A stretch of 64,000 nt of DNA, taken from Selaginella tamariscina. Taxonomy: Eukaryota; Streptophyta; Lycopodiopsida; Selaginellales; Selaginellaceae. Shown in pieces: positions 1 to 59,880 of the stretch (positions are counted from its first letter, which is position 1; every line of letters starts with the position of its first letter). The notes beneath the pieces were generated by a model, which was not told the DNA's origin, searched no databases, and saw only the letters and a list, made by a program, of their open reading frames with translations. The translations under genes were made by a program, and so were the position numbers. The DNA is taken from the NCBI GenBank assembly GCA_003024785.1, contig PUQB01000036.1, positions 784,090-848,089 on the forward strand, in the 5' to 3' direction.

Positions 1-456
1 GTACCACCACATCCAAATCTATGTTTCGGACGAAGAACTGAGGTTGCGAGCTATCTAACATTGCCATGACAAACACAACTACGGGACATTTTGGGCATTC
101 GAAAGAGACGATCGAGTTGGTACAACGTGTGTCTGGTGGCCTTGACTTGACATATATGTTGAAAATTTGTGTGATCTGTGACACGTGCCAGTGTACAAAG
201 CTTCCTTGTCATTAACCAGTTGGACTACTATAGCCTCTTCCTATTACTCAACAGCCATGGTCCTCCATCATCATGGATTTCCTCACTGATTTACCGCCTT
301 CTAGAGGGTTTGATGTTGTCCTAGTCATTGTTGATCGATTCTCTAAGATGACGCACTTTATTCCTTGCAACAAGACATGTTCGGGTCCTGATGCTGCATA
401 TTTGGTGTACTGGGAGGTGTTTCATCTTCATGGTTTTCATGATGAACTTGTTAATT
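1..456 (+). mobile_element. Ty3/gypsy chromovirus fossil, integrase part (left piece)
   Basis: Integrase-like coding remnant. The stretch around 273-450 shows the typical chromovirus integrase words MDFLTDLPPS, VIVDRFSKMTHFIPC and a VFHLHGF-type segment, and the part upstream resembles the zinc-binding HHCC region. The element is broken with many breaks. It is interrupted on its right by the LARD-like insertion at 457-7587 and resumes at 7588. The family assignment rests on motif recognition only. Confidence 0.85.
412..454 (+). repeat. Direct repeat flanking LARD-1, left copy
   Basis: A 43-bp piece of the host integrase remnant is present here and again at 7591-7633, directly outside the two ends of the inserted LTR element, differing at only about two bases. 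LTR elements normally leave 4-6 bp, so this is an atypically long target duplication or the product of later recombination. Confidence 0.8.
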
Positions 457-2126
457 TGTCAGAGTTTTAACCCAAAGGGCCAACACGTGGCAACACGTGG
501 CCATTTGGCGTCATCACCCTGTGTGAGCAACGCTAAGTTTCCTAGAACAACCCCAACGACCCTAGGGTTAGACTCTAATGCCCAAGTGGACAGAGACTTA
601 GGGTTTAGCCTAAGTCTCCCTAGAGTGTCTACCCCCAAAACCCTTGAGGGATAACCCTAGTTGACTTAGGGTCTTGCCCTAGAAGACCTAGACAGGCTCA
701 TGCCCTAACCCCCATCAAGGAGACGTGTGTTCCACACATACCCCTGGACAGAGCTAAGGCATCGTCACTTACCCCTTGAGGAATCACCCTCATCCGGGAG
801 TACAACCCCTTTAGGGCGACAAGGGGTACCCTGAACCACGACTAACCCCTAAGGGTTTGAGTGGCCAAGTTATACCCTAGACCTAGGGCTAGTACTTAGT
901 GAGGACACGAGTGTGCGCCGTAGGCGGACACGAGTGTTCTGCTAAGCAAACTCCCTAAGGCTAGGTTTGGGATAACCCTAAGCACATGACCTTGCGAGTG
1001 CCTCACGAAAGGGCTCCTGCTAACATGTTTAGGTTGTTCAACCCTTGAATTCCAAGGAGAACACTCCCCTAGCCAAGTGTGCCAAAGCACACCTAGTTAT
1101 GAGACCTAACCTCCCTTGAGCGGATGCCCAAGGCTTAGCACCCTAGTGCAAGCACAAGCATGTCTGTTTGCTAAGTATCCAACCCCTTGGCGACAAGCCC
1201 ATGACATAACCCCAAAGGGCGTGCCTCAGGCGTTGTACCATGTGACGTTTAGCCCAGTGTCACATCTCCATGTGACACTGCCTTCCCCGATGTGGGCTAT
1301 CATGCCATAGCCCTTAGATTCAAGAGTTGCACCAAGTGCCACAAACGTGGCTCCTAAATGCCAACTCTAGAACCCCTCAATGAACCCTCAGGAACCAGTA
1401 ACATGAACCTGTCAAACAAGATCCCACGCCACAGTTGGACAAGGACACGGATGTGCCTTGCTTGGCCGTGAGTGCTACACCTAGCTTGACGTGGAGGAGG
1501 AGGCTGGAGACAAGCCTCAACCTCTGCCTCTTGGAACGTGCATTCCGACAAGACCTCCCAGGCATGGATTCGCCAACGTTAAGGGTAAGCTACCCCGATT
1601 TGGAAGTTAGGGCGGCACAACAGAGGGTTGTGCCTTGACGACACAAGCTAGAGCTTGCACCGGGAGAAGAGTAACGAGCTCAGTCATGAACCCAGGAACC
1701 CTCACTCCTATATACTACCTTATTTATGTGACAGAGGCCCCCCCCCTGTTTTCCTGTTTACATAAGTGGGCTAGCACTGAAATCTCATTCCCAGAGGGAA
1801 CATACTTGGTGAGTTATCCATCGACCCCTAAACCCTAACCTGTCAAACCTGGGGGTATTTCTAAGCATATCCGACATGCCGAACTCACCGGAACTAGCCA
1901 TTAATCCAACCGGGACACGGAAAACCAGGTAAGAGTTTTCTAGAAGGTAAGTGCTACTTCGCTTAGAGTTTCTTGCATACTAATGACACCGGCCGGACCA
2001 TCCTAAACCAAGTGCACTAAGCGGGCTGTTTCTCATCTACATCTAGGGCTTGCCAACATAGTACAGTAGGTAACAACAGTCAACGTCCAAAGTAAAGGGT
2101 CGAGTCATAGTAAAAACTATGACACA
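457..2126 (-). repeat. LTR of LARD-1 (3' LTR in element sense)
   Basis: On the plus strand it begins TGTCAGAG and ends TATGACACA, so in the element's sense it runs TGTGTCATAG...CTCTGACA. It is strikingly rich in CCCTA/TAGGG words and contains a telobox-like AAACCCTAA near 1830-1842. A short hairpin made of GTCATAG and CTATGAC (about 2104-2123) sits at the very edge. It matches 5825-7587 over its full length. Confidence 0.85.
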
Positions 2127-2138
2127 CTCCCCGCCTTT
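2127..2138 (-). other. Polypurine tract of LARD-1
   Basis: Read on the minus strand this is AAAGGCGGGGAG, ending directly at the LTR's first base. This is the expected place for the plus-strand primer of an LTR element. The same tract occurs beside copy 2 (12491-12502) and, less pure, beside copy 3 (59551 onward). Confidence 0.75.
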
Positions 2139-5100
2139 GAAAATGTCAACGTCCTCGTTGACGTCCAACTCCAAGACTAGATAATGTTAGAAAAACTAAC
2201 CAAAACTAACATATCACTCTATGCGGAGTCAGCCAAAAGTTCACATAATTTTTACCCCCCTTGCATTACGCGAAACCAAGTACTTCAGAACCGTCGTTCA
2301 CTAAGTCGTAAACCTAGCTGCCGGAGGCACCACCTGCGACATGAAGTCACTTGGAGACCTTTTGCACGTCTGCAAAGTCTGTCACCCGACGCACACAACA
2401 CAATGGTTAATCTTTACTTAACTAGAATTTATATTGGAGGCCTCTAGTTAGTGTTGTTGCCGGCCCCTTGGTTAACAAGAAATAAAGACTTGCTTTATTC
2501 CTTAATATTAAATGCTGTTGACGACCTCTGTGTCTACACAACAAGCACTTCTCAAATGCTTGACCAAACACCTTCGCATTTCTTTTGATTTTCCAATGGT
2601 CCCATCTTCACATGTTACGATATTATAGCTTACATCTCTGCATCCCTCGGTGCTTCTCATTACCCCTTTTCATAAGGGTCTGCTACTATACCTATCTCTC
2701 ATTAGTATATAGCTACGCCAGACTAAGTATGAGACTTTTATCGGAATCAAGCTCTTTTCCGATACAAGAGTACAATTCGTAAAACCCTGTTCTTTGTAAA
2801 CATATTCAATCTGGCCAGAGGCGATCACAGAGGCGCATGGCTGTACACATGTATACAACAAGGTTTGCCAACTTGCCAACCACCATCCACTTGGTGTGTT
2901 ATTAACATAAATTTATTCCCGATAGGAATCAAATTCAGTCAAATTTGCAACCAAGTGTGATAGCACTTACCATTCATCTTTCACAATCAACTTTGTACTC
3001 TTTCATAACACCGACCAGTTCAGGGACCAGATAAGCTAACATACCTTTCTTATAAACCAATGTGGAAACCAGGAAATTCAACCCATCTCTAATGCCTCAA
3101 TCAACAATCTTTGTCTTAATTAGTACCCTCATTGTACTCATTCCCAAAGAGCACATCATATACATGCCGTTCAATACTTCCTAACTCTTTATCTCACTAA
3201 GTTCAAAATACCAAATTTTAAGACTTAGTTTCCACGATAAGAGTCTCTGAATTCGAATACTACAGCCTCCATAACATTATATTTATTTCCAACTCTTAAA
3301 CTGATTTCGTAAATGTTTCTCAACACTATACCGAAGTATAGCATTTTCACTAATTGAAGCAACTAGTGTTTTTGATAAACATCTTTTAAAACTAATCCTT
3401 ATTCTATAAATAGTCGCAATTTCGATATTGATACTCTCGAATGGATAATGATCGTTTTAACGTTCAAATCCTAAGCTTATCAACTAGTTGTTATACTAGT
3501 GGATATAAACTTACAATCATATCAATTTATCGAAATGCTACAACTACATTATAGATATGGTCTTAGTTTACATGAACCGAACTTCAATTTTGAGACGGAA
3601 ATATAATGTTATGACAGTATTTCGAGGAACTTTGTTCAGAGACTAAGAGGAATCATGAACTAGTGTCTGGTTCATCTAATTGATTTAGTAAGATATCAAC
3701 CTCCACATAAATGTTATCATAACACTGAAGTGTTATATCAACTTCATGTTTTCGTCATACCTTATAATTCAATAGATCTCCCCAAACATGAATAAATATC
3801 TAGTTCAGTATGTGAACTAAGATACATTATTCATTCTAGACACCTATAATCCAGAAAGTACTACATTGCCCCTCAAGCAATGTATTGAGAAATGCCTCAT
3901 TTCTCAACTAACTTGAAAACACGTTTCAAGTTATAACACTAAGGTAGTGCCTTACCAAAGTGTTGAACTCAAGTCCGCTTGAGTCTTTATATTTCATGAT
4001 TATGGCCACCTCATGTGATCATAACCAAGTTTAATATTGAGCGCTCCAAACTCAATATTCAAGAGATACCATACTATACTTTGACAAGTCATTTATAATC
4101 AATCTTAAAAGATTGTCATAAATACTTTCAAAGTTTAAGATATGAATATCTCAATGAATGAGGTGATAGGAAACCTCATATTTTGTACCGAATATTGGAC
4201 ATACGTTATGGTCATTTATCACAATCATCAAGAAGGGAGACCATCTTCTTGATTAATCCCGCTACTTCACTTTCAAGAATATTGAACCAAGGTCAAGGAA
4301 CACCATCAAACCTTGAGATAGAACCAAAGACTAACCCAAGGAATACAATCAAACCTTGAGTCAAGAATAGTTCTAATTTTTCAATATTCTAAAGAACTGA
4401 AGATACTACTTTATAAGTTCTTTGAGTCCCACATTTGCGACCATGATGCAAGTCAAGAAACCGTCTTTTGAATAATCGTATTCGACTCTAAAATGAAATC
4501 GTTATTGAAAAAAATACCAACTTCTGATTCTCATCGAATACCGACTCTCTGAGGAGGTACATGCACTTAAACCTCCAATAAAAATCCGACTGTTACTAGC
4601 TCATTGTAATTCTCACATAAGTTATCAAACTTAGCAAGTTTCCTTAGTTGATAAAAAAGTGGAGAATCCCAAATCATGCTCTTCTTAACCAAGGAATCAC
4701 CCTTGTTCAAGAGCTTATCCCCACATTGCAAACAACGTTACAAATTTCAATATTAAAGAGTTAACAATGAAAAATGCACAAGTGTGTGCCGAACGCCTTC
4801 ACTATGCAAGTCCTTCATTACTCAGTAAACTGAAAATGTAAACGTATGTTTCCAACATTACTCTTTGTGATAGATCACGCCATCATCCCAAAAGCTGCAT
4901 TGATAGGGATGCAACATTAAAGCCGAGCTAGCTAACTTGAATACAGAGTGCACGCTTACAACTAAGTAAGGTTTCAAGTTGTACATGTTCAAATTAGGTA
5001 ACTTGAACTTAGTAAACTATTTCACCTAATGTTACTTGTAGCTAGCATCATCAAAATATTGCGAACATCGGACAATACTTTGATTACATTGGATGTTCGA

Positions 5101-5810
5101 ACCAACTGCTTAACATATTCATCATATGTTAATATTTGACATTTTGTTGTATTACAAGTTCACACCATAGTCTGCTTCTAGAGTTACACTCTCAGAAACA
5201 TGCACTATAATGAGAGCTTATTTATACTTTATGTCAAAATGTAGTGTTCTCTTATGTTTGAATATGCCCTTTTTCCGAAGTCAAAGACGCACATTTGAAC
5301 ATAAGTCTTTCCCCGTTTGAACACTACAGTTAAATCTGATATTGAATCTTGACATAAGCCAAAACTCAAAGGACACTGTCTGTTTCCAAATCATGTGTTA
5401 TCCCAAATTCAAACACCTTAAAGAAAAAGAAAATTTTCAATAATGGGTAAGCTTAGCATATCACATGATCCACTTCACAAGACTTAGTTTGTAAGCCAGA
5501 ACAAACTAACACGCCATGTCTTGTGGAAAATATGGTAAAGTAACCTGAACATTCATAAGGTAAAGTAACCTAAAGAAAACGTAACCTGGCATGCAACTTG
5601 GAAGTTGCCTCCCAAGTACTACCCAACATTGGAGTCCATAACCCACACCCACTTATGAAGTAGGTGTCTCTGAAAGTTATAGATCTCAGGACCAACTCTC
5701 TGCGCAAAATTCAGACGTTAGCCAAAAGTGATAAAGTACTTCAAAAATTTAGAACTAACTAAACCCTGAAACACACTACAACTTTAGGCAGTCCTACTGA
5801 CCGTAGAGAA

Positions 5811-5822
5811 TGCTCGATACCA
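5811..5822 (-). other. Primer-binding-like site of LARD-1
   Basis: The minus strand reads TGGTATCGAGCA two bases after the LTR end. It resembles the 3' end complement of initiator methionine tRNA (TGGTATCAGAGC) used by many plant LTR elements. Copy 2 carries the related TGGTATTAGAGTC at the same place (about 16218-16230). It fixes the element's orientation. Confidence 0.75.
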
Positions 5823-5824
5823 AT

Positions 5825-7587
5825 TGTCAGAGTTTTAACTCAAAGGGCCAACACATGGCGACACATGGCTGTCAGGTGGCCATTCGGCGTCATCACCCTG
5901 TGTGAGCAATGCTAAGTTTCCCAAAACAACCCCAGTTAGACTCTAATGCCCAAGTGGACAGGAGACTTAGGGTTTAGCCTAAGTCTCCCTAGAATGTCTG
6001 CCCCCAGAATCCTTGAGGGATAACCCTAGTTGACTTAGGGTTTAGCCTAAGTCTCCCTAGAGTGTCTACCCCCAAAACCCTTGAGGGATAACCCTAGTTG
6101 ACTTAGGGTCTTGCCCTAAAAGACCTAGACAGGCTCATGCCCTAACCCCCATCAAGGAGATGTGTGTTCCACACATACCCCTGGACAGAGCTAAGGCATC
6201 GTCACTTACCCCTTGAGGAATCACCCTCATCCGGGAGTACAATCCCTTTAGGGTGAGAAGGGGTACCCTGAACCACGACTAACCCCTAAGGGTTTGAGTG
6301 GCCAAGTTATACCCTAGACCTAGGGTTAGTACTTAGTGAGGACACGAGTGTGCGCCGTAGGCGGACACGAGTGTTCTGCTAAGCAAACTCCCTAAGGCTA
6401 GGTTTGGAATAACCCTAAGCACATGACCTTGCGAGTGCCTCACGAAAGAGCTCCTGCTAACATGTTTAGGTTGTTCAACCCTTAAATTCCAAGGAAAACA
6501 CTCCCCTAGCCAAGTGTGCCAAAGCACACCTAGTTATGAGACCTAACCTCCCTTGAGCGGATGCCCAAGGCTTAGCACCCTAGTGTAAGCACAAGCATGT
6601 CTGTTTGTTAAAGTATCCAACCCCTTGGCGACAAGCCTATGACATAACCCCAAAGGGCATGCCTCAGGCGTTGTACCATGTGACGTTTAGCCCAGTGTCA
6701 CATCTCCATGTGACACTGCCTTTCCCGAGGTGGGCTATTATGCCATAGCCCTTAGGTTCAAGAGTTGCACCAAGTGCCACAAACGTGGCTCCTAAATGCC
6801 AACTCTAGAACCCCTTAGTGAACCCTCAGGATGGTAATGTGAACCTGTCAAACAAGATCCCACGCTCACAGTTGGACAAGGACACGGATGTGCCTTGCTT
6901 GGCCGTGAGTGCTACACCTAGCTTGACGTGGAGGAGGAGGCTGGAGACAAGCCTCAACCTCTGCCTCTTGGAACGTGCATTCTGACAAGACCTCCCAGGC
7001 ATGGATTCGCCAACGTTAAGGGTAAGCTACCCCGAAGGTGGGACGTACCCCTGGCATCTGGAAGTTAGGGCGGCAACAGAGGGTTGTGCCTTGACGACAC
7101 AAGCTAGAGCTTGCACCGAGAAGAGTAACGAGCTCAGTCATGAACCTAGGAACCCTCACTCCTATATACTACCTTATTTATGTGACAGAGGCCCCCCCCC
7201 TGTTTTCCTGTTTACATAAGTGGGCTAGCACTGAAATCTCATTCCCAGAGGGAACATACTTGGTGAGTTATCCATCGACCCCTAAACCCTAACATGTCAA
7301 ACCTGGGGGTATTTCTAAGCATATCCGACACGTCGAACTCACCGGAACTAACCATTAACCCAACCAGGACACGGAAAACGAGGGTAAGAGTTTCTAAAAG
7401 GTAAGTGCTACCTTCGCTTAGAGTTTCTCGCGATATCTAAGGATAGCTGGCCGGACTACCCCTAAACACCTAAGTGCACTAAGCGGGGCTGTTTCTCACT
7501 ACATCTAGGGCTTGCCAACATAGTACAGTAGTAACAACAGTCAACATCCAAAGTAAAGGGTTGAGTCATAGTAAAAACTATGACACA
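5825..7587 (-). repeat. LTR of LARD-1 (5' LTR in element sense)
   Basis: Full-length partner of 457-2126, with the same TGTCAGAG start and TATGACACA end. It differs mainly by small insertions, including an extra repeat of the 'gacttagggtttagcctaag' type segment near 5965-6060. As the 5' LTR it should contain the promoter. The plus-strand run TCCTATATACTACC near 7160 reads TATATA on the minus strand and is a possible TATA box. Confidence 0.85.
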
Positions 7588-8915
7588 ACAGAGGTGTTTC
7601 ATCTTCATGGTTTTTATGATGAACTTGTCAATGATCGAGGTCCCCAGTTCACTTCGGCATTCTGGCGGAGATTCCTAGATTGACTACATACCACTAGGAA
7701 GATTTCTACTGCACATCATCCTGAAACAAATGGCCAAACGGAGCCCATGATTCAGACTCTAGAACAATATCCCGGTGTTTCATTTCTCATCTGCAAGATG
7801 ATTAGGTCGATCTCCTTCCTACTGCCGAGTTCACGTATAACATCATGGCATACTCATCCATAAGTGTGTCGCCATTTTTTGCGTTTCTGGTGTTCATCCT
7901 CGCTGGTCCAACAGCTTGCTCGTGGTTCCTGGCCTTACCACTACTGCCGATGATCGTGTTGAGCATCTCCAACAGGTCCATGAAGAAGTGTAGCATCATC
8001 TTTAACGCGCTCAGGATTTGCAACAACAAGCTGTTGATCATTCCCGTTCCTCTCCTCCAACATTCACAGTTAGTGACCAAGTGTGGCTCCTCTAGTGTCA
8101 TTGGCCAACCACACGTCCTTGTGATAAGCTAAACTATCAACACTTGGGCCCATTTCGCATCATCGAGAGACTCTCTGATGTGACGTTTCGTCTCGAGCTT
8201 CCACCAACCATTTGGATCCATCACGTGTTCCATGTTTCTTTGTTGGAGCCTTATTATGCTCTTTCTAAACCCGGCCGACTTCTTCCACACGTCCCTGTGA
8301 GCTGGACTATCAACGCTTGGGCCCATTTTGATGATTCCCTATGACAAGCTGGACTATCAACACTTGGGCCCATTTTGCATCATTGGCACGTCCCTGTGAC
8401 AAGCTGGATTATCAATGCTTGGGCCCATTTTACATCATCAAGAGACTTTCTGATGTGATGTTTTGTCTCGAGCTTCCACCAACCATCCGAATCCATCCCG
8501 TGTTCCATGTTTCTTTGTTGGAGCCTTATCATGCTCCTTCTGAACTCGATCGACTTCTTCCACCACCTCCTCCAGTTACAGTTGCTAGTGAACTTGAGTT
8601 CGAGGTTGCTATAATTCTTGACTCCAAACTTGTTCGTGATTAGCTTTACTATTTCGTGGACTGGGTCGATTATCCGCCTAGCAAACGCACTTGGGAATGC
8701 ATGTTGCTCATCTTGTTCATGCTCCTAATCTTGTTGCCGAGTTCCATCATCGATATCCCAAGTGCGCCTGGTGATCCTGCCATCCGGATCCATCCTATGT
8801 TTCATGTTTTTTTGTTGGAGCCTTATCATGCTCCTTCTGAACCCAGTCGACTTCTTCACCACCTTCTCCGGTTATAATTGCTGATGAACCTGAGTTCAAG
8901 GTTACTGCAATTCTA
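7588..8915 (+). mobile_element. Ty3/gypsy chromovirus fossil, integrase end and chromodomain part (right piece)
   Basis: Continuation of the remnant at 1-456. The integrase core words near 7640-7730 (RGPQFTS-, STAHHPETNGQTE-like) are followed by the C-terminal linker HVFHVSLLEPYYA and a chromodomain-like VDWVDYPPSKRTWE around 8655-8700. The linker region has been multiplied: segments with 'cttgggcccattt' occur near 8145, 8318, 8368 and 8420, and the LLEPYHAPSE block occurs near 8245, 8520 and 8815. Broken with many breaks. Confidence 0.8.
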
Positions 8916-9525
8916 GGATTAAAGACCATCTACAACATGCAAAAACATTCAAGGAAGAAGAAAAAGAACAATAGCAAACCTAAACCACTAGTGGTGGCTG
9001 TGCTACCAATTATCAAAATAGAAACATAACAACAGCCTTTGAAAAGGGAAAAAATTCTAAAAGACAAAGTGATGAAGACAAACTCGAAAACCGTAAGTCA
9101 AAGAAATCAAAGAATCAAAAGTAAAATGGTTCATAAAAGTTACTTTCATAAGAAATAATTCTTTGTATTAACTGATTGTCCAGATCTCCGTTTGTACTTT
9201 TTTTGACTCAATGAACAGCCCTTATCCTCAGCTACAAGCACGTTTTGACCGATTTCCATTCCGAGTTTTCTTCTGGCTAATATTCACTAAATACGGTGAT
9301 TTTGCTTAAACAAATTATAGCTCTTAGCTCTCTCTATTCACATCCATATTCCATAATCTTGGTGCCGTTGGGACGAGCTGGTCCAGATCTACATACCCAT
9401 TTAGTCCGATCTCGATTTATGTGACATCCGTTCCTACTAGTTTTGGTGTCTTTACGAAGCCCTTAGCCTGATCTACGTCCACGTGTTTTTCTGATCTCCG
9501 TTTCGTCCTTTCTTTAAACACCCCA
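8916..9525 (+). repeat. Unidentified repeat family X, partial copy 1
   Basis: This stretch is a direct, somewhat shorter copy of 19290-20025. It starts in the tail of the family's coding-like part (ATTAAAGACCATCT...) and runs on through a non-coding section ending CCGTTTCGTCCTTTCT. Two internal segments present in the other copy are missing. No known family is recognised. Confidence 0.7.
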
Positions 9526-9911
9526 ATTAAATCAAACGACAATTAATACTTGTTTTTTTTTAATAAATTATTATGCTGCACCACATAATTAATAAAAAAC
9601 AATTGTAAGTACATGCAATATTATTGTATATGTATTCATATATATAATATATATTATATATATACAAACGTATATAAATAACATTTATGAGTACATTAAC
9701 AAATATAATTAACATTCTACTAACACGATTAAACATAGTTAAAAATAAATTAAGGATTTAATTGTAAAAAGTGTTCGTATTCTATGCATGCCAATTTATG
9801 TTTGCATATACAAGTTTGACAGATTGGTTAGCTTGTTAGGTTTGACATTTTTGAGGTTGTTGGTTCGCGTCCTACTAAAATAATTTTTTGATTAGAGGAT
9901 TTAGGAACGTG
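9526..9911. other. AT-rich stretch with a possible tRNA-derived SINE scrap
   Basis: No gene is seen. Around 9822-9890 a B-box-like GGTTCGCGTCC stands about 30 bp after a weak A-box-like TTGGTTAGC, followed by an A/T tail, which is the layout of a tRNA-derived SINE head. The A box is poor, so this is tentative. Confidence 0.25.
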
Positions 9912-10750
9912 ATTAACTGTTTAAGCACGCAATTAGGCAGGAGGAGGTTAATAACACTTGTTTTCAGTTGTATTAATTATTTATGTTTAATAGCTTCTTA
10001 CTTAATTAAATTATATAATATTAACCTTATATAATATAGTATTATTCTACATATGTATTACACATTCATATATAATATTCCATTGTTATTATAAATTTTA
10101 ATACTGCATAACTAATAAAAAAGGACAATTTACAGGGACAATCCTTTTCAAAAGTAATTAAAAAGTCAATATTTATCTTCTTTTTAAATGCAATTAGGCT
10201 TCTACATAAAAGGCAAATGCCCATTTAAATTAATTGAATGTCATTTAATTGTATAACTACAACACATATATTTATAATATAGCAAGTGTTAATTTTATTG
10301 AATATAATATTCAAATTTAAATATTACAATCCAATACTTTAACAAATATTATATTATTGGATTTACAATTACAATTCATTCACATGTATAACCAATAATA
10401 ATAGTTTTAAAAATAAAATTTATATTTGAACATAAGACATAATACTTTACAAAAGCTTTATTAAATTCATCATTTCTCTATGTACAAAGATTAATTTTCG
10501 ATAGTGTTGCAAATGGGTTGTCCAAAAACTTTAAGCCACAAAGAACAAGATAAATAAAACAAAATCTATAAAGAATAACAAAGACGAGATAAACATTTGC
10601 AAATAACAACATAGTTCAATCAACACAGCATTCTTTTACTCCTGTCCCTCCATCGCGATATCCATTTCGCATCATTTTCATCTCGACAAGCAATGCTCAT
10701 CTAAAGACCTTCTCAACTAAAAACAAAAGTAGGAAATCAAAATCAGAAAT
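9912..10750 (+). repeat. Long inverted repeat arm Y, left copy
   Basis: The reverse complement of this stretch is found at 20034-20856, with high similarity and a few small indels such as 22 bp present only here near 9980. It is non-coding and AT-rich, with a conserved pair of GGACAATTT/CCTTTTCAAAA motifs. Its inner end abuts LARD-2. A distant relative of its centre is seen near 17480-17590. Confidence 0.85.
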
Positions 10751-10757
10751 CCAAAAT

Positions 10758-12490
10758 TATCAGAGTTTTAACCTAAAGGGTCAACACGTGACAACACGTG
10801 GTTGCCAAGTGGCCATTCGACGTCATCATCCTGTGTGAGCAACGCTAAGTCTTTCAAGATAGCCCTAAGAGTCTGACTCAGGGGCCCAATTAGGCAAAAG
10901 ACTTAGAGTCCTACCCTAAGTCCCCTAGAATGACCATCCCCCCTGAACCCTAGAAAATAACCTGAGTAGACTTTAGGATCTTGTCCCAATAGACCTAGAC
11001 AGGCTCATGTCCTAACCCCACAAAAGAGATGTGTCTCACACATACCCTTGTGACAGAGTTAAGGCATCATCACTTACCCCTCGAGGAATCACCCTCATCT
11101 GGGAGTACAACCCCTTTAGGGCGACAAGGGGTACCTGAACCACGACTAACCCCTAAGGGTTTGAGTGGCCAAGTCATACCCTAGACCTAGGGCTAGTACT
11201 TACTGAGACACGAGTGTGCGTCGTAGTGGACACGAGTGTTTTGTTAAGCAAACTTCCCAAGGCTAGGTTTGGATAACCTAAATACATGACCTTGTGAGTG
11301 TCTCATGAAGGGCTTTGCTAATGAGCTTAGGTTGTTCAACCCTTAGATCTTAAAGAGAACACCCCCTAGCTAGTGTACCAAAGCACACCTAGTTACGAGA
11401 CCTAACCTCCCTTGAGCGATGCCAAGGCTTAGCACCCTAGTGCAAGCACAAGCATGTATGTTTGCTAGAGTATCCAACCCCTTGGCGACAAACCCATGAC
11501 ACAACCCCAAAGGGCGTGCCTGGGCGTTGTATTGTGTGTTCTAGCCTAGTGTCACATCTCCATGTGACACTGCCTTCCACGATGTGGGCTATTCATGCCA
11601 TAGCCCTTTAGATTCGAGAGTTGCACCAAGTGCCACAAATGTGGCCTAAATGCCAACTCTAGAACCCCTTAGTGAACCCTAGGAACTGGTAATGTGAACC
11701 TGTCAAACAAGATCCCACGCCCACAGTTGGACAAGGACAGATGTGCCTTGCTTGGCCGTGAGTGCTACACCTAGCTTGACGTGGAGGAGGAGGCTGGAGA
11801 CAAGCCTACCTCTGCCTCTTGGAACGTGCATCCGACAAGACCTCTCAGCATGGATTCGCCAACGTTAAGGGTAAGCTACCCCGAAGGTGGGACGTACCCC
11901 TGTCATCTGGAAGTTAGGCAGCACAACAGAGGGTTGTGCCTTGATGACACAAGCTAGAGCTTGCACCGGAAAAGAGTAACGACTCATTCATGAACCCAGG
12001 AACCCTCACTCCTACATACTCTACCTTATTTATGTGACGGAGCCCCCCCCCCCCCTCTTTTCCTGTATGTGTAGTGGGCTGGCACTGAATTAGCTAGCCC
12101 CTTATTAAGTTAATGAGAGAGTGTTTAACTTAGCCTAACTCTACCCTAAACCCTACCCAAGGGGGTGGGGGTTTTTAGGGCGTGGGTTAGGGCAACCTAG
12201 GGTTAGGTCAACCCTAGGGGTGTTCCTAACCCTACTAAACACACGAACTCACATTAACCAATCACCTAATTGGGACGTCAAAATTGGGGGTGGGTTTTAG
12301 AAGGTAAGTTCTAGCTTGCTTAGAGTTTCCTGCAAATACCTAATGACACCCGGCCGGACCATCACCAGATACCCAAGTGCACTAAGGGGCCTGTTTCCTA
12401 CTACATCTAGGGTCCATCAACATAGTACAGTAGGTAACAACAGTCAACGTCCAAAGTAAAGGGTCGAGTCATAGTAAAAACTATGACACA
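10758..12490 (-). repeat. LTR of LARD-2
   Basis: Ends in ACTATGACACA followed by CTCCCCGCCTTT, identical to the junction of LARD-1. It is rich in CCCTA/TAGGG words, with telobox-like ACCCTAAACCC around 12150. Confidence 0.8.
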
Positions 12491-15400
12491 CTCCCCGCCT
12501 TTGAAAATGTCAACGTCCTCGTTGACGTCCAACTCCAAGACTAGATAATGTTAAAAAAACTAACCAAAACTAACATATCACTCTATGTGGAGTCAGCCAA
12601 AAGTTCACATAAGTTTTATTACCCCCCTTGCATTACGCGAAACCAAGTACTTCAGAACCGTCGTTCACTGAGTCGTAAACCCAGCTGCCGGAGGCACCAC
12701 CTGCGACATGAAGTCACTTGGAGACCTTTTGCACGTCTGCAAAGTCTGTCACCCGACGCACACAACACTGGTTAATTTCTTTACTTAACTAGAATTTATA
12801 TTGGAGGCCTCTAGTTAGTGTTGTTGCCGGCCCCTTGGTTAATAAGAAATAAAGACTTGCTTTATTCCTTAATATTCAAATGCTGTTGACCCTGTCGTCT
12901 TAGCACACAACAAGCACTTTGACGTCCATCTAAGTGCTTAACCAAACGCCTTCTCATTTTTTGATTTCCAATGGTTCCACATTTCCATATGTTACAATAT
13001 TTAGCTTACATTTCTGCATTCCTCGGTGTTTCTCATTACCCCTTTACATAAGGGTCTGCTACTATACCTATCCCATTAGTATATAGTTACGCCAGACTAG
13101 GTATGAGACTTTTATCGGAATCAAGCTCTTTTCCGATGTTAGATACTTCTCTGAAACCCTATCTTTGTAGACATGTCAATCTGGCCAGAGGCGATCACAG
13201 AGGCGCATGGCTGTACACATGTATACAACAAGGTCATGCCAACTTGAAATTAACCCATCCACTTGATGTGTCATTGACATAACTTCATTCCAATGGAAAT
13301 TAAATTCAGGTCAAATCTACTACCAAGTGTGATAGCACTATATTCGTCTTCGCAACCTACTTTGTACTCTTTCATAACACTGACCAGTTCAGGGACCAGA
13401 TAAGCTTAACATACCTTTCTACAAACCAATGTGGAAACCAGGAAATTCAACCCATCTCTAGTGCCTCAATCGATGACCTTGGATATACATCCCTTAATTG
13501 TCACTTTCATTGTACTCATTCCACATCATACTAGATGCCGTTCAATACTTCCAACTCTTTATCTCACTAAGTTTAAAAATACCAAATTTTAAACTTAGTT
13601 TCCATGATAAGAGTCTCTCTAAACTCAGAATACTGCACGCCTTCATAACATTATATTTATTTTCAACTCTTAAACTGATTTCATAAATGTTTCTCAACAC
13701 TATACCGAAGTATAGCATTTCACTAATTCGAGCAATTAGTGATTTGATAAACATCTTTTTAAACTAATCCTTATTCTATAAACAGTTGCAATTTCGATAT
13801 TGATACTTTCGAATGGATAATGATCGTTTCAACGTTCAAATCCTAAGCTTACCAATTAGCTATTATACTAGCAGATATAAACTTACAATCATATCAATTA
13901 TCGAAATGTTACAACTATAATATAACATGGTTTTAGTTTATATGAACCAAACTTCAGTTTTGAAATGGAATTATAATTTATAACATTATTTCAAGGAACT
14001 TATTCAGAGACTAAGAGAATCATGAACTAGTGTCTAACTCATTTAGCAAGATATTATTTTCCACAGTAATGTTATCATGACACCAAAGTGCCACCATAAC
14101 TTCATGTTTCAGTATATCTCATAAGTTCAGTAAATCCTTTCCAAACATGAATAAAATATTTAGTTCAATATGTTGAACTAAGATACACTATTCATTCTAG
14201 ACACCTAGTAATTCAAAAGTACCACATTGCCCCTTAGCAATGTATTGAGAAACGCCTCATTTCTCAACTAACTTGAAAACATGTTTCAAGTTATAACACT
14301 AAGGTAGTGCCTTACCAAAGTGTTGAACTCAAGTCTGTTTGAGTCTTTATATTTATGATTATGGCCACTCATATGATCATAACCAAGTCTTAATATTGAG
14401 CGCTCCAAACTCAATATTAAGAGATACCATACTATACTTTGACAAGTCATTTATAATTAATTTTAAAAGACTGTCATAAATACTTTAAAGTCTAAGATAT
14501 AAATATCTCAAAGAATGAGGTGATAGAAACCTCATATTTTTGTACCAAATATTGAACCATACGCTAGGAACCATGAACTCTAATCATCAAGAAGGGACAC
14601 CAACTTCTTGAATTAATCTAACCAATGGATATCTCACTTTCAAGGATTTTGCCAAACTCAAGGACACCATAAACCTTGAGTTAAAAATAATGACTAGCCC
14701 AAGGAATACAATCAAATCTTGAGTCAAAATAATTCTATTTTTCGATATTCCAAAGAATTGAAGATACCTACTTGATAAGTTCTTTGAATGCCCACATTTT
14801 AACCATGATGCAAAGTTAAGAAACCATCTTTTGAATAATCATATTCGACTCTAAAATGAAATCGATATTGAAAACCAATACCAACTTTAATTCTTATCGA
14901 ATACATACTATCTTAAGGAGGTATATGCACTTAAACCTCCAATGGAAATCCGATTGTTATTGGCTCATTGATAATTCTCAACATAAGTTATCAAACTTAG
15001 CAAGTTTTCTTACTTATCGATAAACTAAGTGAGAATCCCAAATCATGCTCTTCTTAAGCAAGGAATCACCCTTGTTTAAGAGCTTATCCCTCATTGCAAA
15101 CAACGTTACAGATTCCAAGATTAAAGAGTTAATATAAAAATCACAAGTGCCTTCACTATGCAAGTCCTTCATTACTCAGTAACCTGAAAATGTAAATGTA
15201 TGTTTCCAACATTACTTTTTATGATAAATCATGCCATCCATCCAAAAGCTGCATTGATAGAGATGCAACATTAAATTCGTCTACTACCAAAATCTATTAT
15301 TCTATTTCATTCTTATGATCCCACATGAGATAACTTCATAATCAAGTTAGTCGAGCTAGTTAACTTGAATACAAAGTGCGTGCTTACAACCAACTAAAGT

Positions 15401-16232
15401 TTCAAGTTATACTATGTTCAAATCAGGTGACTTGAACTTAGTAAACTATTTCACCTAATGTTACTTGTAGCTAGCATCATCAAAATATTATGAACATCGA
15501 ACAATACTTTGATTATATTGGATCTAAGAACCAACTGCTTAACATATTCATCATATATTAATATTTAACATTTGTTATATTATAAGTTCATCACCATAGT
15601 CTGCTTCTGGAGTTACATTCTAGAAAACATCCACTATAATGAAAGCTTATTTTACACTTTATATCAAAATGTAGTATTCCCTCTTATATTGAGTATGCCC
15701 CTTTTTTCCGAAGTCAAAAATGCACATTTGAACATAAGTCTTTCCCCGTTTGAACACTACAATTGGATCCGATATTGAATCTTGCCCTAAGTCAAAACTC
15801 AATAGACACTGTTTGTTTCAAAATCATGTGTTATCCCAAATTCAAACACCTTTAAATAAAAAGAAAAATTTTCAATAATGTGTAGACTTAGGATATCACA
15901 AGACACACCTCACAAGACTTAGTTTGTAAGTCAGAACAAACTAACATGCCACATCTTGTGAGTATATGGTAAGGTAACATGAACATCCATAAGGTAAAGT
16001 AACCTGGCATACAACTTGGATGTTGCCTTCCAAGTGTTACCGTTGACATTTGAATCCATAACCCACAGGTGTACTCTAAAGAGTTATAGATCTCAGGACC
16101 AACTCTCCACGCAGAATTCAGACGTTAACAAAAAGTGATAGAGTACTTCAAGAATTTAGAACTAACTAAACCTTAAAACACACCACACTTTAAGCAGTTC
16201 TACTGACTATAGAGAATGACTCTAATACCAAT
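12491..16232 (-). mobile_element. Non-coding internal domain of LARD-2
   Basis: Homologous to 2127-5824. Many of the same inverted repeat pairs are present, for example CATTGC/GCAATG, AATATTGAG/CTCAATATT, GGAGGT/ACCTCC and GTTCAA/TTGAAC. Some pairs differ from copy 1 only by G-U-compatible changes, such as ACTCAAG with TTTGAGT. No coding frame is seen. Confidence 0.8.
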
Positions 16233-16792
16233 TGTCAGAGTTTTAACCCAAAGGGCCATGATGTGGCAACACATGGCTGCCAAGTGGCCATTCAACATCA
16301 TCACCCTGTGTGAGCAATGCTAAGTCTTACAAGATAACCCTAAGAGTCTGACTTAGGGCCTAATTAGGCAAAAGACTTAGAGTCCTACCCTAAGTCCCCT
16401 ATAATGACCATCTAGAAAATAACCCGAGTAGACTTTAGGATCTTGTCCCAATAGACCTAGACAGGCTCATGCCCTAACCCCACAAAAGAGATGTGTCTCA
16501 CACATACCCTCGTGACAGAGCTAAGGCATCGTCACTTACCCCTCGAGGAATCACCTTCATCCGGGAGTACAACCCCTTTAGGGCGACAAGGGGTACCTTG
16601 AACCACAACTAACCCCTAAGGGTTTGAGTGGCCAAGTCATACCTAGACCTAGGCTAATACTTACTGAGGACACAAGTGTGCACTGTAGGTGGACACGAGT
16701 GTTTTGTTAAGCAAACTCCCCAAGGCTAGGTTTGGATAACCCTAAGTACATGACTTTGCGAGTGTTTCATGATAGGGCTTTTGCTAATGAGC
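16233..16792 (-). repeat. Partial LTR of LARD-2
   Basis: Starts TGTCAGAGTTTTAACCC and follows the LTR consensus for about 560 bp, after which unrelated sequence begins. Confidence 0.8.
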
Positions 16793-17626
16793 AACAGTTC
16801 TAATGGTGTAGTCAGTCAATTTTATGTTTGACAAAGCGTACGGAGCAAACGGATTGTTTGTTGAGGGAGTCACACCCTTCTCAATGATTTTCTATGTCTT
16901 GTTATTGAACAACTCAACCATACCGCATTGTCCGCACACCCTTTGCCTACTTATTACATTTTTTCCGTACTCGTCAACCCATTCACTTGCAAGGTTACCC
17001 AAGTTCACAACATTCTTGAACGAATTCTTCCTCATGGACATGAAATTCAAACTTGTAGATAACACTTTCTTTCTTGACCTCACCATGATGGATACACCCT
17101 AAATCCCACAAACTGTACACTACATACTTCCTTTTCTTAAAAAAAGGTTGAAAACACGTTCAGACCTAAACAATAACCTAAACGTGGTTAGTGCAACGGC
17201 CAGGAATTGATTTGCTTGTAACTCTTTCAATACAGCTTAGATTTGTGTGAGTTTGGTATCGATGGAAAGAGATCGTTGAGATTTACAAGTCTGTACACAC
17301 GGATATTGAAAATGCTAATATCATATTATAAGTTAAAGGTGAGTTCGGTTTGACCATACGAATTTGCCATTAATACATATGTATAAAATAACTAATTGAA
17401 CTAACAAAAAGGACGACTTAATAATATTACTCAATATAATACAGAGAACTAATTAATATACAACTATAAAACATGAAATTCAACAAACAAAAAAGGACGA
17501 TTTAAAAGGCTAGTCCTTTTCAAAAAGGAATTAGGATTCTCCAAAAAAGGCAATATTCATCCTTTTCAAACGCAAATAAAAGGGCGCTACGTAGGATCGG
17601 TTTATAGGTTTAGACTAAATGGTGAC
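16793..17626 (-). other. Unidentified coding-like remnant and AT-rich sequence
   Basis: On the minus strand a frame starting near 17086 reads MVRSRKKVLS...WVDEYGKNVISRQRVCGQCGMVELFNN and continues in a protein-like way toward 16800 (NPFAPYALSNIKLTDY). It has a basic start and one CxxC pair. No family is recognised, and it may belong to the same mobile unit as repeat X. From 17160 to 17626 I see no gene, only a weak relative of arm Y near 17480-17590. Confidence 0.35.
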
Positions 17627-18240
17627 TGGTAAAAAGACGAGAGAGGAACATAACAGCCACGTCAGCTCATTGATTACTAAGTACAACGAGAAGGACCACC
17701 CAGAACAGATCTAGGGCGTAATGAAACAGTTCTTACTCTCCACAAGTCTTCTACAGAGAGATAGTGTTGACTAGACAGGAGTGTAACAATTATTTGGCTA
17801 CCTACAAGAAAGAAAATGGTCACAAACTTGACTTATACTATGTAGCACAACTGCTATTTGTCTTTAACATTCCTCAGGATAGAATACTTGCGTTCAATGG
17901 TACTGCTCAACGTAACGCGTGCGATGCATGCTAGAAAAGACTAAGAGAGCATGAACCAACTGACTAACAAAAGCTCACACGTTGGTGAAATTCATCAATC
18001 TTGGGATTAAAGACCATCTGCAACTTGCGAAAACATTCAAGGAAGAAGAAAAGAACAGTAGCAAACCTGAACCACCTAGGTATCCTATGAAAGCAACTTT
18101 TACAAACCAGCTTACTTTTGACTAGTGCTACCAATTATCAAAATAGAAAACACAACAACAGCCTCGGAAAAGGGAAAAAATTCTAAAAGACAAAGTGATG
18201 AAGACAAACTCGAAAACCATAAGTCAAAGAAATCAAAGAG
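17627..18240 (+). repeat. Unidentified repeat family X, copy 2
   Basis: Direct copy of the coding-like part of family X: it shares TGGTAAAAAGACGAGAGAGG and the following 600 bp with 18895-19490. It is decayed. It directly abuts the left arm of the palindrome at 18241. Confidence 0.75.
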
Positions 18241-18798
18241 GTTTGCTACTGTTCTTTTCTTCTTCCTTGAATGTTTTTGCAGGTTGCAGATGGTCTTTAA
18301 TCCCAGGATTGATGAATTTCACCAACGTGTGAGCTTTTGTTAGTATTTTGCTGTTTGATTCCTCAGTTAGTTCATGCTCTCTTAGTCTTTTCTAGCATGC
18401 ATCGCACGCGTTACGTTGAGCAGTACCATCGAACGCAAGTATTCTATCCTGAGGAATGTTAAAGACAAATAGCAGTGTGTTGCATAGTACAAGTCAAGTT
18501 TGCGACCATTTTCTTTCTCGTAGGTAGCCAAATAATTGTTACACTCCTGTCTAGTCATGTATTCTACACTATCTCTCTGTAGAAGACCTGTGGAGAGTAA
18601 GAACTGTTTCATTATGCCTTGGATCTGTCCTGGGTGGTCCTTCTCGTTGTACTTAGTAATCAATGAGCTGATGTGACTGTTATGTTCCTCTCTCGTCTTT
18701 TTACCAGCCCACCACTCTTCGGGAGGGCAACCGATGAAATTCAATTTGAATGAATGCTTTCTGTTTGGAAAAAATATTTCGTTAGACTGAACATCTTG
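18241..18798 (-). repeat. Family X, copy 3; left arm of a 0.55 kb palindrome
   Basis: Reverse complement of 18822-19366, separated by a 23-bp spacer. The minus strand reads a protein-like frame (about 18744-18382) with CPPEEWWAGKKTREEH, LLQRDSVEYMTRQEC and YEKENGRKLDLYY. No known domain is recognised. All copies appear decayed. Confidence 0.8.
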
Positions 18799-18821
18799 CT
18801 TACTTTGTTTGCTGAGATTTA

Positions 18822-20025
18822 CAAGATGTTCAGTCTAATGAAATATTTTTTTCAAACAGAAAGCAGTCATTCAAATTGAATTTCATTGGTTGCCCTCCCG
18901 AAGAGTGGTGGGCTGGTAAAAAGACGAGAGAGGAACATAATAGCCACGTCAGCTCATTGATTACTAAGTACAACGAGAAGGACCACCCATGACAGATCCA
19001 GGGCATAATGAAATAGTTCTTACTCTCCACTGGTAGTGTAGAATACATGACTAGACAGGAGTGTAAAATTTATATGGCTACCTACGAGAAAGAAAATGGT
19101 TGCAAACTTGACTTGTACTATGCAGCACAACTGCTATTTGTCTTTAACATTCCTCAGGATAGAATACTTGCGTTCAATGGTACTGCTCAACGTAACGCGT
19201 GCAATGCATGCTGGAAAAGACTAAGAGAGCATGAATCAATTGAGGAATCAAATAGCAAAATACTAACAAAAGCTCACACGTTGGTGAAATTCATCAATCC
19301 TAGGATTAAAGACCATCTGCAACTTGCGAAAACATTCAAGGAAGAAAAAAAGAACAATAGCAAACCTGAGTGGCTGTGCTACCAATTATCAAAATAGGAA
19401 ACACAACAACAGCCTCGGAAAAGGGAAAAAATTCTAAAAGACAAAGTGACGAAGACAAACTCGAAAACCGTAAGTTAAAGAAATCAAAGAATTAAAAGTA
19501 AACTAGTTTGTAAAAGTTGCTTTCATAGGAAATAAATTCTTTGTATTAACTGACTGTCCAAATCTTTGTTTGTACTTTTTTTTGACTCAATGAACAGCCC
19601 TTATCCTCAGCTACAAGCACGTTTTGACCGATTTCCATTCCGAGTTTTCTTCTGGCTAATATTCTCTAAATACGGTGATTCTGCTTAAACAATTTGATTA
19701 GCTCAAATCAACGGTACACATTAATTATAGCTCTTAGCTCTCTCTATTCACATCCATATTCCATAATCTTGGTGCCGTTGGGACGAGCTGGTCCAGATCT
19801 ACATACCCATTTAGTCCGATCTCGATTTAGTCTCCGATCCGCTAATATTTCACTAATCATTGAGCAGTTGTTAATATGCACAATTAACCAAAACCGACGG
19901 TCCACGGCGTTTTTCTTGAATAACTCTCCGTACCAAACATCCGTTCCTACTGGTTTTGGTGTCTTTGCGAAGCCCTTGGCCTGATCTACGTCCACGTGTT
20001 TTCTGATCTCCGTTTCATCCTTTCT
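18822..20025 (+). repeat. Family X, copy 4; right palindrome arm and downstream part
   Basis: 18822-19366 mirrors 18241-18798. The protein-like frame (LFVFNIPQDRILAFNG, NACWKRLREHE, KAHTLVKFINPRIKDH) is followed by a long non-coding tail that is shared with 9120-9525. This is the longest copy of the family here. The protein is unknown to me: charged, with conserved Cys and Trp residues (NACNACW). It could be part of a DNA transposon or a virus-like element. Confidence 0.75.
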
Positions 20026-58772: not shown

Positions 58773-59880
58773 TGTCAGGGCTCACCTTGTGAGTTAGGAT
58801 TTGTGAGCTAGTAAAGCTGCAAGTGTTGTTTTTAGCTTCGCGTGGATGAGGTGGTCGGAGCAAGGCCTCATCCACTAGTCTTGCAAAACATGAACTCAGG
58901 CAATCCTTTCCATGCTTGTGAGCAGGTTGACAGACCAAAGAATTGATTAACTCCTTAGACGTGACGTACTCGTCACAGGGCAAAATTTTGCCAATGATAA
59001 GGGTAGCCTAACCCAAAGATGAGACCACCCTTGTCGTGTGGAAGTTAGGTGTGCATAATAATATTGAGCTTAACTTGCACCGGTAGGAGAATAACCTAGA
59101 AACTCTTACTACATTTATTTATGTGACAAAGGCCCCCCCATTTCCTAATAGGGTAAGTGAGCTGGCATGGAATGCCAACCCTTAGTGCCCCTAACCCTTT
59201 TGACAAGTTATACTCTTTGAGAGAACCTAAATGGAACATTAAATTAGGGGAAAGTTTTCTAAAAAAGCTACGTGCTTTTGCCTAGAGTTTCTTGAGATAT
59301 CTAGTGACAGCCAGTCAGACTACTCCTAAACACCTAAGTGCATAAGTGGGGTTGTTTCTCATTATATTTAGGGTTTGCCACATAATCTAGTAAGTAACAA
59401 CAGTCAGCTTTCAAAGTAAAATAGATATCCGATTGCGCAGGACCTGCGCTTGGTGACCCGGCAGGCACAGCCAGGCGCACCTAATCTATATTTATCATTA
59501 TTCAATTGTTCGGCAGCACCAGGTTGAGTCATAGTAAAAACTATGACACACTCCCCATCTATAAAAATGTCAACATCCTCGTTAATGTAAGACTAGACTA
59601 GGTTAGGAAAAATTAACTAAAAAACTAATACTAATCACTCTTTGCAGAGTCAACAAAAAGTTCACAAGTTTTATTCCTTTTACATTATGGAAGCTAAGTA
59701 CTTCAAAACCATCATTCATTAAATAACAACTCAGTTATCGGAGGCACCACCTTCGATATGAAATTACCTGGAGACCTTTGCACATCCTACAAAGTCTGTC
59801 ACCTAACACATATAATATTTAGTTAATTTCTTTATTTTAATTAGTATTTATATTAAAGGCCTCTAGATAATATTGTTGGG
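58773..59880 (-). mobile_element. LARD-like fragment, copy 3
   Basis: An LTR-like part 58773-59550 begins TGTCAGGG and ends CTATGACACA, followed by CTCCCCATCT and about 330 bp of the interior. Compared with copies 1 and 2 the LTR is much shorter and more diverged, and 59421-59522 is a GC-richer segment absent from the others. Broken and the oldest-looking of the three. Confidence 0.75.

What the first reader, a model, noticed from the sequence alone, without database searches (positions are those of the whole stretch)
2127..5824. LARD interior made of serial, nested hairpins
Instead of gag-pol the 3.7 kb interior is a string of perfect short inverted repeats spaced every few tens of bases. 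Examples are TTAACATAT (5110-5118) with ATATGTTAA (5124-5132), AATATTGAG (4033-4041) with CTCAATATT (4051-4059), and nested pairs such as TAGTGTTC (5242-5249) with GAACACTA (5319-5326) enclosing CTTATGTT (5251-5258) with AACATAAG (5298-5305). This is far more ordered than AT-rich DNA should be and suggests the genomic RNA is an extended multi-stem structure, perhaps for packaging or for evading small-RNA silencing.
Basis: partly seen in the sequence, partly recalled or inferred. Interest (0 to 1): 0.85.

Follow-up and report, generated by a model that had tools for sequence, protein, structure and literature searches.

The report
Noncoding retrotransposon with selected RNA folding
A high-copy jumping gene, apparently from a plant, encodes no protein and instead carries a 3.7-kb RNA predicted to fold into dozens of short hairpins; differences among its copies indicate that this folding was protected by natural selection while the element was mobile.

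Summary
All four quoted inverted repeats are exact. The element is a minus-strand LARD-type LTR retrotransposon (457-7585) with PBS, PPT and no recognised coding. Raw hairpin counts are not distinctive, since unrelated DNA of the window also exceeds shuffles. Folding energy is: the interior is 25-28% more stable than dinucleotide shuffles, three other window regions 2-9%. Mutations that break sense-strand pairs are common as private variants but depleted among variants shared by three or more copies (broken:unpaired 136:126 versus 28:119; odds ratio 4.6, p 4e-11; 4.5 after stratifying by mutation type and CpG). For antisense pairs the ratio is 1.4-1.9. Compensated double changes are twice the null (34 vs 17; 0 of 500), on either strand, as expected for Watson-Crick swaps. 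Folding weakens as private mutations accumulate. The sense RNA's structure was therefore probably under purifying selection along the interior. Conserved RNA structure in LARDs is already in print, so this is a new family of a known kind with unusually strong evidence. What the folding does (protection, compaction, packaging) is inferred, not shown.

The parts
457..2124 (-). LTR of element A (3' LTR in the sense orientation), plus-strand ends TGTCAG...TATGACA
   Evidence: LTR-LTR identity 95.4%; ends, the last two bases reassigned by the 5-bp target-site duplications seen in L009, L016 and L011
2125..2139 (-). polypurine tract, sense CAAAGGCGGGGAGTG, next to the LTR
   Evidence: sequence; the GGCGGGGAG end is kept in 17 of 19 aligned copies, L015 being cut short there and L028 differing
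2125..5824 (-). noncoding interior; its minus-strand RNA is predicted to fold into 45 stem-loop domains with 75 hairpin loops (46 and 77 in young copy L009)
   Evidence: no stop-to-stop frame over 88 aa, and none of 5 interior frames scanned (A and L009) matches Pfam above cut-off
5110..5132 (-). quoted hairpin TTAACATAT/ATATGTTAA
   Evidence: exact; fully paired in 28 of 32 copies, gaps in 3, one mismatch in 1
4033..4059 (-). quoted hairpin AATATTGAG/CTCAATATT
   Evidence: exact; fully paired in 8 of 32 copies, one position unpaired in 19, two in 1, gaps in 4
5242..5326 (-). quoted nested stems 5242-5249/5319-5326 and 5251-5258/5298-5305
   Evidence: exact; fully paired in 28 and 30 of 32 copies; the same nested domain appears in the fold of L009
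5812..5822 (-). primer-binding site, sense TGGTATCGAGC (TGGTATCGGAGCC in 10 of 19 aligned copies), resembling the initiator tRNA-Met type
   Evidence: sequence; the tRNA assignment is recalled knowledge
5825..7585 (-). second LTR of element A (5' LTR in the sense orientation)
10758..12488 (-). LTR of copy B of the same family
12489..16232 (-). interior of copy B, 87.5% identical to A, also structured (mean z -1.25 minus, -1.20 plus)
16233..16787 (-). truncated second LTR of copy B
59253..59878 (-). old LARD fragment C: LTR pieces plus about 330 bp of the PPT end of the interior
   Evidence: about 75% identity; its two nearest genomic relatives match the L009 interior only over 325-345 bp

Best explanation
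The feature is the noncoding genome of a LARD, a non-autonomous LTR retrotransposon whose sense strand is the minus strand. SHOWN by computation: the sense RNA is predicted to fold into a continuous series of short stem-loops (45 domains, 75 hairpins in A); the fold is shared by copies across the genome; variants that break it are depleted among shared variants relative to private ones, and those that keep it, G-U included, are not. SHOWN: some copies are young (LTRs 99.5-99.9% identical), so the element moved recently without proteins of its own. INFERRED: the breaking variants were removed while the lineage was mobile; the element is copied in trans by the Gag and reverse transcriptase of another retrotransposon; and the folding serves the whole RNA (compaction and shielding from nucleases, ribosomes and silencing, perhaps many weak Gag contacts) rather than being one local packaging signal. 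I put about 0.85 on selected sense-RNA structure and about 0.4 on the global protection/compaction function.
For: Energy: mean 120-nt z of -1.44 to -2.02 in the sense strand of 8 of 8 copies tested; MFED 25-28% interior and 17.5% LTR against 2.0-8.6% in four control sets. Selection, 32 copies, sense pairs with P at least 0.7: broken:unpaired 136:126 private against 28:119 shared, OR 4.6, p 4e-11; stratified by mutation type and CpG 4.5, p 2e-8; broken:kept 136:85 against 28:76, OR 4.3, p 7e-9. Antisense pairs: 92:197 against 56:172, OR 1.43, p 0.08; broken:kept OR 0.67, p 0.27. Covariation: 34 of 964 sense pairs show a compensated double change, null 17.0 +/- 3.5, 0 of 500; slid partners 7-20. 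One-sided changes in sense pairs are G-U in 664 cells and A-C in 261 (cells, not events). Structure decays with private mutations (energy per base rho 0.62, p 1.5e-4; MFED rho -0.45, p 0.01; 32 copies). Depletion has the same direction in all four quarters (OR 2.5-15.9, small counts). Recent mobility: LTR-LTR identity 99.86, 99.58 and 99.50% in 3 of 9 pairs measured, and exact 5-bp target-site duplications in 3 of 7 elements with both ends visible (read).
Against: Energy alone is not strand-specific: antisense MFED of L009 is 28.1%, and in L016 and L018 the antisense z is as strong as the sense z. The covariation excess is not strand-specific either: 34 of 772 antisense pairs against 17.4 +/- 3.9, 0 of 500. 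So the strand claim rests on the depletion contrast, and antisense pairs still show a weak depletion at two of three cut-offs (OR 1.5 p 0.01; 1.9 p 0.02). Double-broken pairs are also in excess (23 vs 12.5), so part of the double-change signal is mutation clustering. Copies A and B alone show no compensation excess. With 26 copies the transitions-only test was not significant. In 27 LTRs the sense broken:unpaired ratio is significant at two of three cut-offs (OR 3.5 p 0.002; 2.8 p 0.04; 2.6 p 0.1), broken:kept at one of three, and the antisense LTR set gives p 0.02 at the strictest cut-off on 20 broken sites. No transcript, probing or small-RNA data were available, and no helper element was identified.
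Confidence: 0.72

Rival explanations
1. Mutational origin: reverse-transcriptase template switching turns imperfect palindromes into perfect hairpins, which pile up because no protein constrains the interior; no function is needed.
For: Double-broken changes are also clustered; 11 of 19 compensated pairs listed lie only 9-30 columns apart; energies and covariation are alike on both strands.
Against: It predicts no depletion of pair-breaking variants among shared variants and no difference between strands; both are seen. Seven of the 19 compensated pairs are 43-126 columns apart, and one spans 382 columns across an insertion.
Confidence: 0.12
2. A localized packaging, dimerisation or nuclear-export signal is the only selected part, and the rest of the folding is incidental.
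For: Retroelement RNAs generally need such signals (general knowledge; passages on structured export elements in PMC12786077); the strongest depletion is in the third quarter (OR 15.9).
Against: Depletion has the same direction in all four quarters, and most sense windows of the young copy L009, LTRs included, have negative z (29 of 30).
Confidence: 0.15
3. DNA-level structure (cruciforms, matrix attachment or integration preference) is what is kept.
For: Watson-Crick hairpins are strand-symmetric; energies and covariation are strong on both strands.
Against: The depletion of pair-breaking variants, and the sparing of pair-keeping ones, is much stronger under sense-strand pairing rules; DNA hairpins would treat G-T and A-C mismatches alike.
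Confidence: 0.05
4. The hairpins feed small-RNA production (hairpin-derived siRNAs or miRNAs), so the structure is a silencing or regulatory source and not a shield.
For: Hairpins are abundant; sub-threshold Rfam miRNA matches occur elsewhere in the window.
Against: The longest uninterrupted helix in the predicted fold of L009 is 14 bp, with none of 17 bp or more; no miRNA family reaches threshold in L009.
Confidence: 0.06

Closest known systems
LARD (large retrotransposon derivative; Sukkula of barley, Kalendar et al. 2004)
   Same: LTRs, PBS, PPT, kilobase-scale conserved interior without coding, many copies, dependence on helper proteins assumed. [quoted passage not shown]
   Different: Different family and host. 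Here structure is tested against shuffles and by covariation and private/shared variant contrasts. The 2004 paper is not held, so how it tested structure could not be compared; long Sukkula LTRs of about 4.4 kb are recalled, against 1.64-1.83 kb for the LTRs extracted here.
[quoted passage not shown]
   Same: Consecutive short stem-loops along the whole RNA, high MFED, less variation at paired sites (PMC7642675, abstract and passages). The interior's 25-28% is above the values quoted there (about 15% SARS-CoV-2, 7.5-10.7% HCV, 23.4% the highest recorded); same fragment length, larger step and my own dinucleotide shuffle.
   Different: Not a virus and no coding constraint. Pair positions are shared among copies here, whereas that abstract reports GORS pairings to be poorly conserved between related viruses.
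Retrozymes
   Same: Plant non-autonomous LTR elements, no coding, tRNA-Met PBS, PPT, highly base-paired RNA (PMC4918200 passages: above 70% double-stranded for metazoan retrozyme-like RNAs, said to resemble the plant ones). Here 68-70%.
   Different: Retrozymes have direct repeats of 300-400 bp with hammerhead ribozymes, a central region of 300-600 bp and 4-bp TSDs; here LTRs are 1.6-1.8 kb, the interior 3.7 kb, TSDs 5 bp, and no hammerhead is among the Rfam matches.
TRIM elements such as Cassandra
   Same: Noncoding LTR elements with predicted conserved RNA folds (PMC7215508 passages).
   Different: TRIMs have short LTRs and almost no interior (same passages).

Membership tests
LARD | Two LTRs with TG...CA ends and short target-site duplication | tested here: met
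   exact 5-bp duplications in 3 of 7 elements with both ends visible (CAAGC in L009, CGAAC in L016, AACCA in L011); not in A, L018, L026 or L027
LARD | PBS and PPT for reverse transcription | tested here: met
   TGGTATCGGAGCC PBS in 10 of 19 copies, variants of it in 7, interior cut short in 2; GGCGGGGAG PPT end in 17 of 19
LARD | Kilobase-scale interior conserved among copies | tested here: met
   29 of 32 aligned interiors are 3.5-3.76 kb (others 2.8, 2.9, 4.1); the first 19 are 88-99% identical
LARD | No gag-pol coding | tested here: met
   Longest stop-to-stop frame 85 aa in the L009 interior and 88 aa in interior A; 5 interior frames scanned, no Pfam match above cut-off
LARD | Conserved RNA secondary structure | tested here: met
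   (predicted, not probed)
LARD | Mobilised by an autonomous partner | tested here: inconclusive
   20 LTR-adjacent stretches: 5 continue into LARD interior, 4 have an LTR end followed by other DNA, 11 show no LTR-end motif; none was searched for coding
Retrozyme | Hammerhead ribozyme in the LTR | tested here: not met
   Searches (window 1-20000, E up to 1; L009, E up to 5): no hammerhead family among the matches
TRIM | Short LTRs and nearly no interior | tested here: not met
   LTRs 1.64-1.83 kb, interior about 3.7 kb
GORS (as a property) | MFED well above unstructured controls along the whole RNA | tested here: met
   single 350-nt fragments range 7-56% in the L009 interior and 3-47% in A, so not every fragment is high
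GORS (as a property) | RNA folded in the cell | not testable with these tools
   Needs chemical probing

The most novel reading that the evidence does not exclude
A plant retrotransposon has traded its protein genes for a genome-scale ordered RNA structure: the fold itself, spread over the whole transcript, is the selected product that lets a noncoding RNA survive silencing and outcompete for a helper's particles, an LTR-retrotransposon counterpart of GORS in persistent RNA viruses.
Probability: 0.4. Interest if true: 0.8.

Novelty: new member of a known kind. Interest (0 to 1): 0.6.

Why it matters
Why LARDs keep kilobases of noncoding interior is, in my assessment, an open question; the searches listed no paper whose title or abstract start answers it. 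The contrast of private with shared variants in one genome indicates that the sense-strand fold, not only the sequence, was under selection, and it can be repeated on any LARD family. If the fold protects or packages the RNA, these elements are natural models for how a noncoding RNA parasitises a helper and escapes silencing.

Tried and rejected
Raw counts of perfect hairpins: rejected as a measure, because controls also exceed shuffles. A strand-symmetric helix finder with G-T and A-C treated alike found too few wobble cells to decide. A-B pairwise covariation: negative (one search had failed through a filter error in my script, and one search stopped on a script error, rerun). Copy C as a deeper lineage: rejected, because L037 and L038, its nearest relatives, match the L009 interior only over 325-345 bp. 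One search gave a covariation excess but chose pairs with the carriers included; it was replaced, which define pairs only from majority-letter copies. The LTR test mixed both orientations and is void; one search replaces it. Helper element: none identified in 20 LTR-adjacent stretches, which were compared with the LARD interior but not searched for coding. Rfam: no family at threshold in the element.

Rows dropped: of 20 full stretches (L009-L028), L010 (interrupted interior), L019 (same hits as L018) and L020 (rearranged) were left out, 17 used; with A and B that makes 19, plus L029-L036 makes 27, plus L039-L043 makes 32. L037 and L038 are fragments and were left out. The tests with 26 copies leave out B. 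Variants seen in exactly two copies were left out, as were sites of intermediate pairing probability. The copies come from best-hit lists, not a random sample: 40 scored of 1490 first-look candidates and 40 of 2774, of which I fetched 28 and 5.

Full report
WHAT IS THERE. Element A spans 457-7585, with LTRs 457-2124 and 5825-7585 that are 95.4% identical around an interior of 2125-5824. It reads on the minus strand: a PBS-like TGGTATCGAGC follows the sense 5' LTR and a polypurine tract (CAAAGGCGGGGAGTG) precedes the other. The ends TGTCA...TGACA are set by exact 5-bp target-site duplications in L009, L016 and L011, 3 of 7 elements with both ends visible. The interior has no stop-to-stop frame over 85 aa in L009 or 88 aa in A, and the 5 frames scanned have no Pfam match above cut-off. 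A second copy, B (10758-16787), is 87.5% identical over the interior. The held genome (300.7 Mb, 1391 contigs) gave 1490 loose candidates for one 601-bp stretch of interior; the 40 scored are all 95% or more identical. The plant identity of the host is my inference.

IS IT MORE THAN CHANCE. The quoted repeats are exact. Perfect-hairpin counts exceed shuffles about fivefold, but several unrelated regions do much the same. Folding energy separates the element from its surroundings. Mean z of 120-nt windows is -1.72 sense and -1.16 antisense in interior A, with 47% and 27% of windows below -2, while the 25 two-kb blocks away from the two elements lie between -0.92 and +0.34. Eight copies of eight give sense means between -1.44 and -2.02; antisense means run from -0.97 to -1.73, and in L016 and L018 are as strong as the sense ones. 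With 350-nt fragments MFED is 27.7% (L009) and 25.0% (A), LTR 17.5%, control sets 2.0-8.6%; antisense L009 gives 28.1%, so energy does not choose the strand. The predicted sense fold of L009 has 46 domains and 77 hairpin loops, 70% of bases paired; helices of at least 10 bp number 20 against a mean of 6.5 in four shuffles, the longest is 14 bp, none 17 bp or more.

IS IT SELECTED. My premise is that private variants are mostly post-insertion and close to neutral, while variants shared by three or more copies mostly passed through mobile ancestors. For 32 copies, pairs were defined only from copies carrying the majority letter. At P of at least 0.7 in the sense strand, private variants are 136 broken, 85 kept, 126 unpaired; shared ones are 28 broken, 76 kept, 119 unpaired. 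Broken:unpaired OR is 4.6 (p 4e-11), stratified by mutation type and CpG 4.5 (p 2e-8); broken:kept OR is 4.3 (p 7e-9). The same copies with antisense pairs give OR 1.43 (p 0.08), stratified 1.5 (p 0.16), and broken:kept 0.67 (p 0.27). At the other two cut-offs the antisense broken:unpaired OR is 1.5 (p 0.01) and 1.9 (p 0.02), below the sense values of 3.1 and 4.5 (all). With 26 copies the sense values were similar (broken:unpaired OR 2.5-4.9 at four cut-offs) and the antisense ones 1.8-2.2, each with p below 0.05; stratified, sense 3.1-4.9 and antisense 2.3-2.6. With only 18 copies most of these tests were not significant.

COVARIATION. Compensated double changes occur in 34 of 964 sense pairs against 17.0 +/- 3.5 when partners are re-dealt (0 of 500), and in 7-20 when partners are slid; double-broken pairs are also raised (23 vs 12.5), so part of this is mutation clustering. 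Antisense pairs show the same excess (34 of 772 against 17.4, 0 of 500), as expected because Watson-Crick swaps look alike from either strand; this result supports the stems but not the strand. With 26 copies the sense figures are 16 vs 4.3 (0 of 500) with 10 vs 4.1 broken. One-sided changes in sense pairs are G-U in 664 cells and A-C in 261; these count sequences, not events.

DECAY AND SPREAD. Energy per base weakens with private mutations (rho 0.62, p 1.5e-4) and MFED falls (rho -0.45, p 0.01), though even the most mutated copies keep 15-20%. All quarters of the interior share the direction of the depletion, on small counts. In 27 LTRs the sense broken:unpaired signal is present at two of three cut-offs.

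RESULTS AGAINST. Copies A and B alone show no excess of compensated changes (8 vs 7.3). The transitions-only test was not significant. One of the quoted stems is imperfect in most copies. In the LTRs the antisense set reaches p 0.02 at one cut-off. Antisense energy and covariation equal the sense ones. The copies come from best-hit lists.

HOW IT WORKS. Young copies with LTRs 99.5-99.9% identical (3 of 9 pairs measured) show recent movement without proteins, so a helper is inferred; none was identified in 20 LTR-adjacent stretches, which were not searched for coding. Because depletion is spread along the RNA and predicted stems stay short, I favour a global role (compaction and shielding) over a single packaging signal. 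This step is inference.

WHAT IS KNOWN. [quoted passage not shown] 2004, which is not held. GORS in RNA viruses is the closest property (PMC7642675, abstract and passages). Retrozymes (PMC4918200, passages) are much smaller and carry hammerheads. Searches for GORS with retrotransposons, and for retrotransposon RNA structure with covariation, showed no LTR-retrotransposon GORS case in the titles and abstract starts listed; that is a statement about those listings only.

CHANGE AFTER CHECKING.

Noticed in passing
414-455 and 7591-7632: Element A has no matching 5-bp duplication; instead a 42-bp direct repeat (95% identical) lies directly beside or within a few bases of its two ends, in Ty3/gypsy integrase-like sequence (integrase likeness partly by eye, one search gives only a weak match on the left flank).
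   Followed up: partly
L012 and L022 (G000 C1102, about 86-99 kb): Two LARD copies appear in tandem sharing one LTR (LTR-interior-LTR-interior-LTR), seen from overlapping stretches.
   Followed up: no
about 4921 (window) against 15275-15349 (copy B): Element A lacks about 75 bp present in B and most fetched copies; in L009 the corresponding region holds a predicted stem-loop (sense 888-940).
   Followed up: partly
18680-18940 (minus): Match below the curated cut-off to MIR7533 (E 1.1e-29, 141 bits, cut-off 230), possibly a long-hairpin transposon-like repeat.
   Followed up: no
59253-59878, L037, L038: An old LARD fragment; its two nearest relatives L037 and L038 share about 1.3 kb in two blocks at 89-90%, mostly outside the LARD part, suggesting a duplicated block.
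   Followed up: partly
LTR positions about 1416-1567 of the element A LTR (query ltr3A): Many copies with otherwise about 92% identical LTRs do not align here and match weakly just beyond (77-86%), as if a block had been swapped between subfamilies.
   Followed up: no
5964-6050 and 6032-6119: An 88-bp near-tandem duplication (92%) in one LTR of element A that the other LTR seems to lack; other copies appear to vary for it.
   Followed up: no
L057 (G000 C686:179450-180360): The DNA beside this LTR also looks, by eye, like Ty3/gypsy integrase on the strand opposite to the LARD sense, as beside element A, possibly nested insertions into one host family.
   Followed up: no
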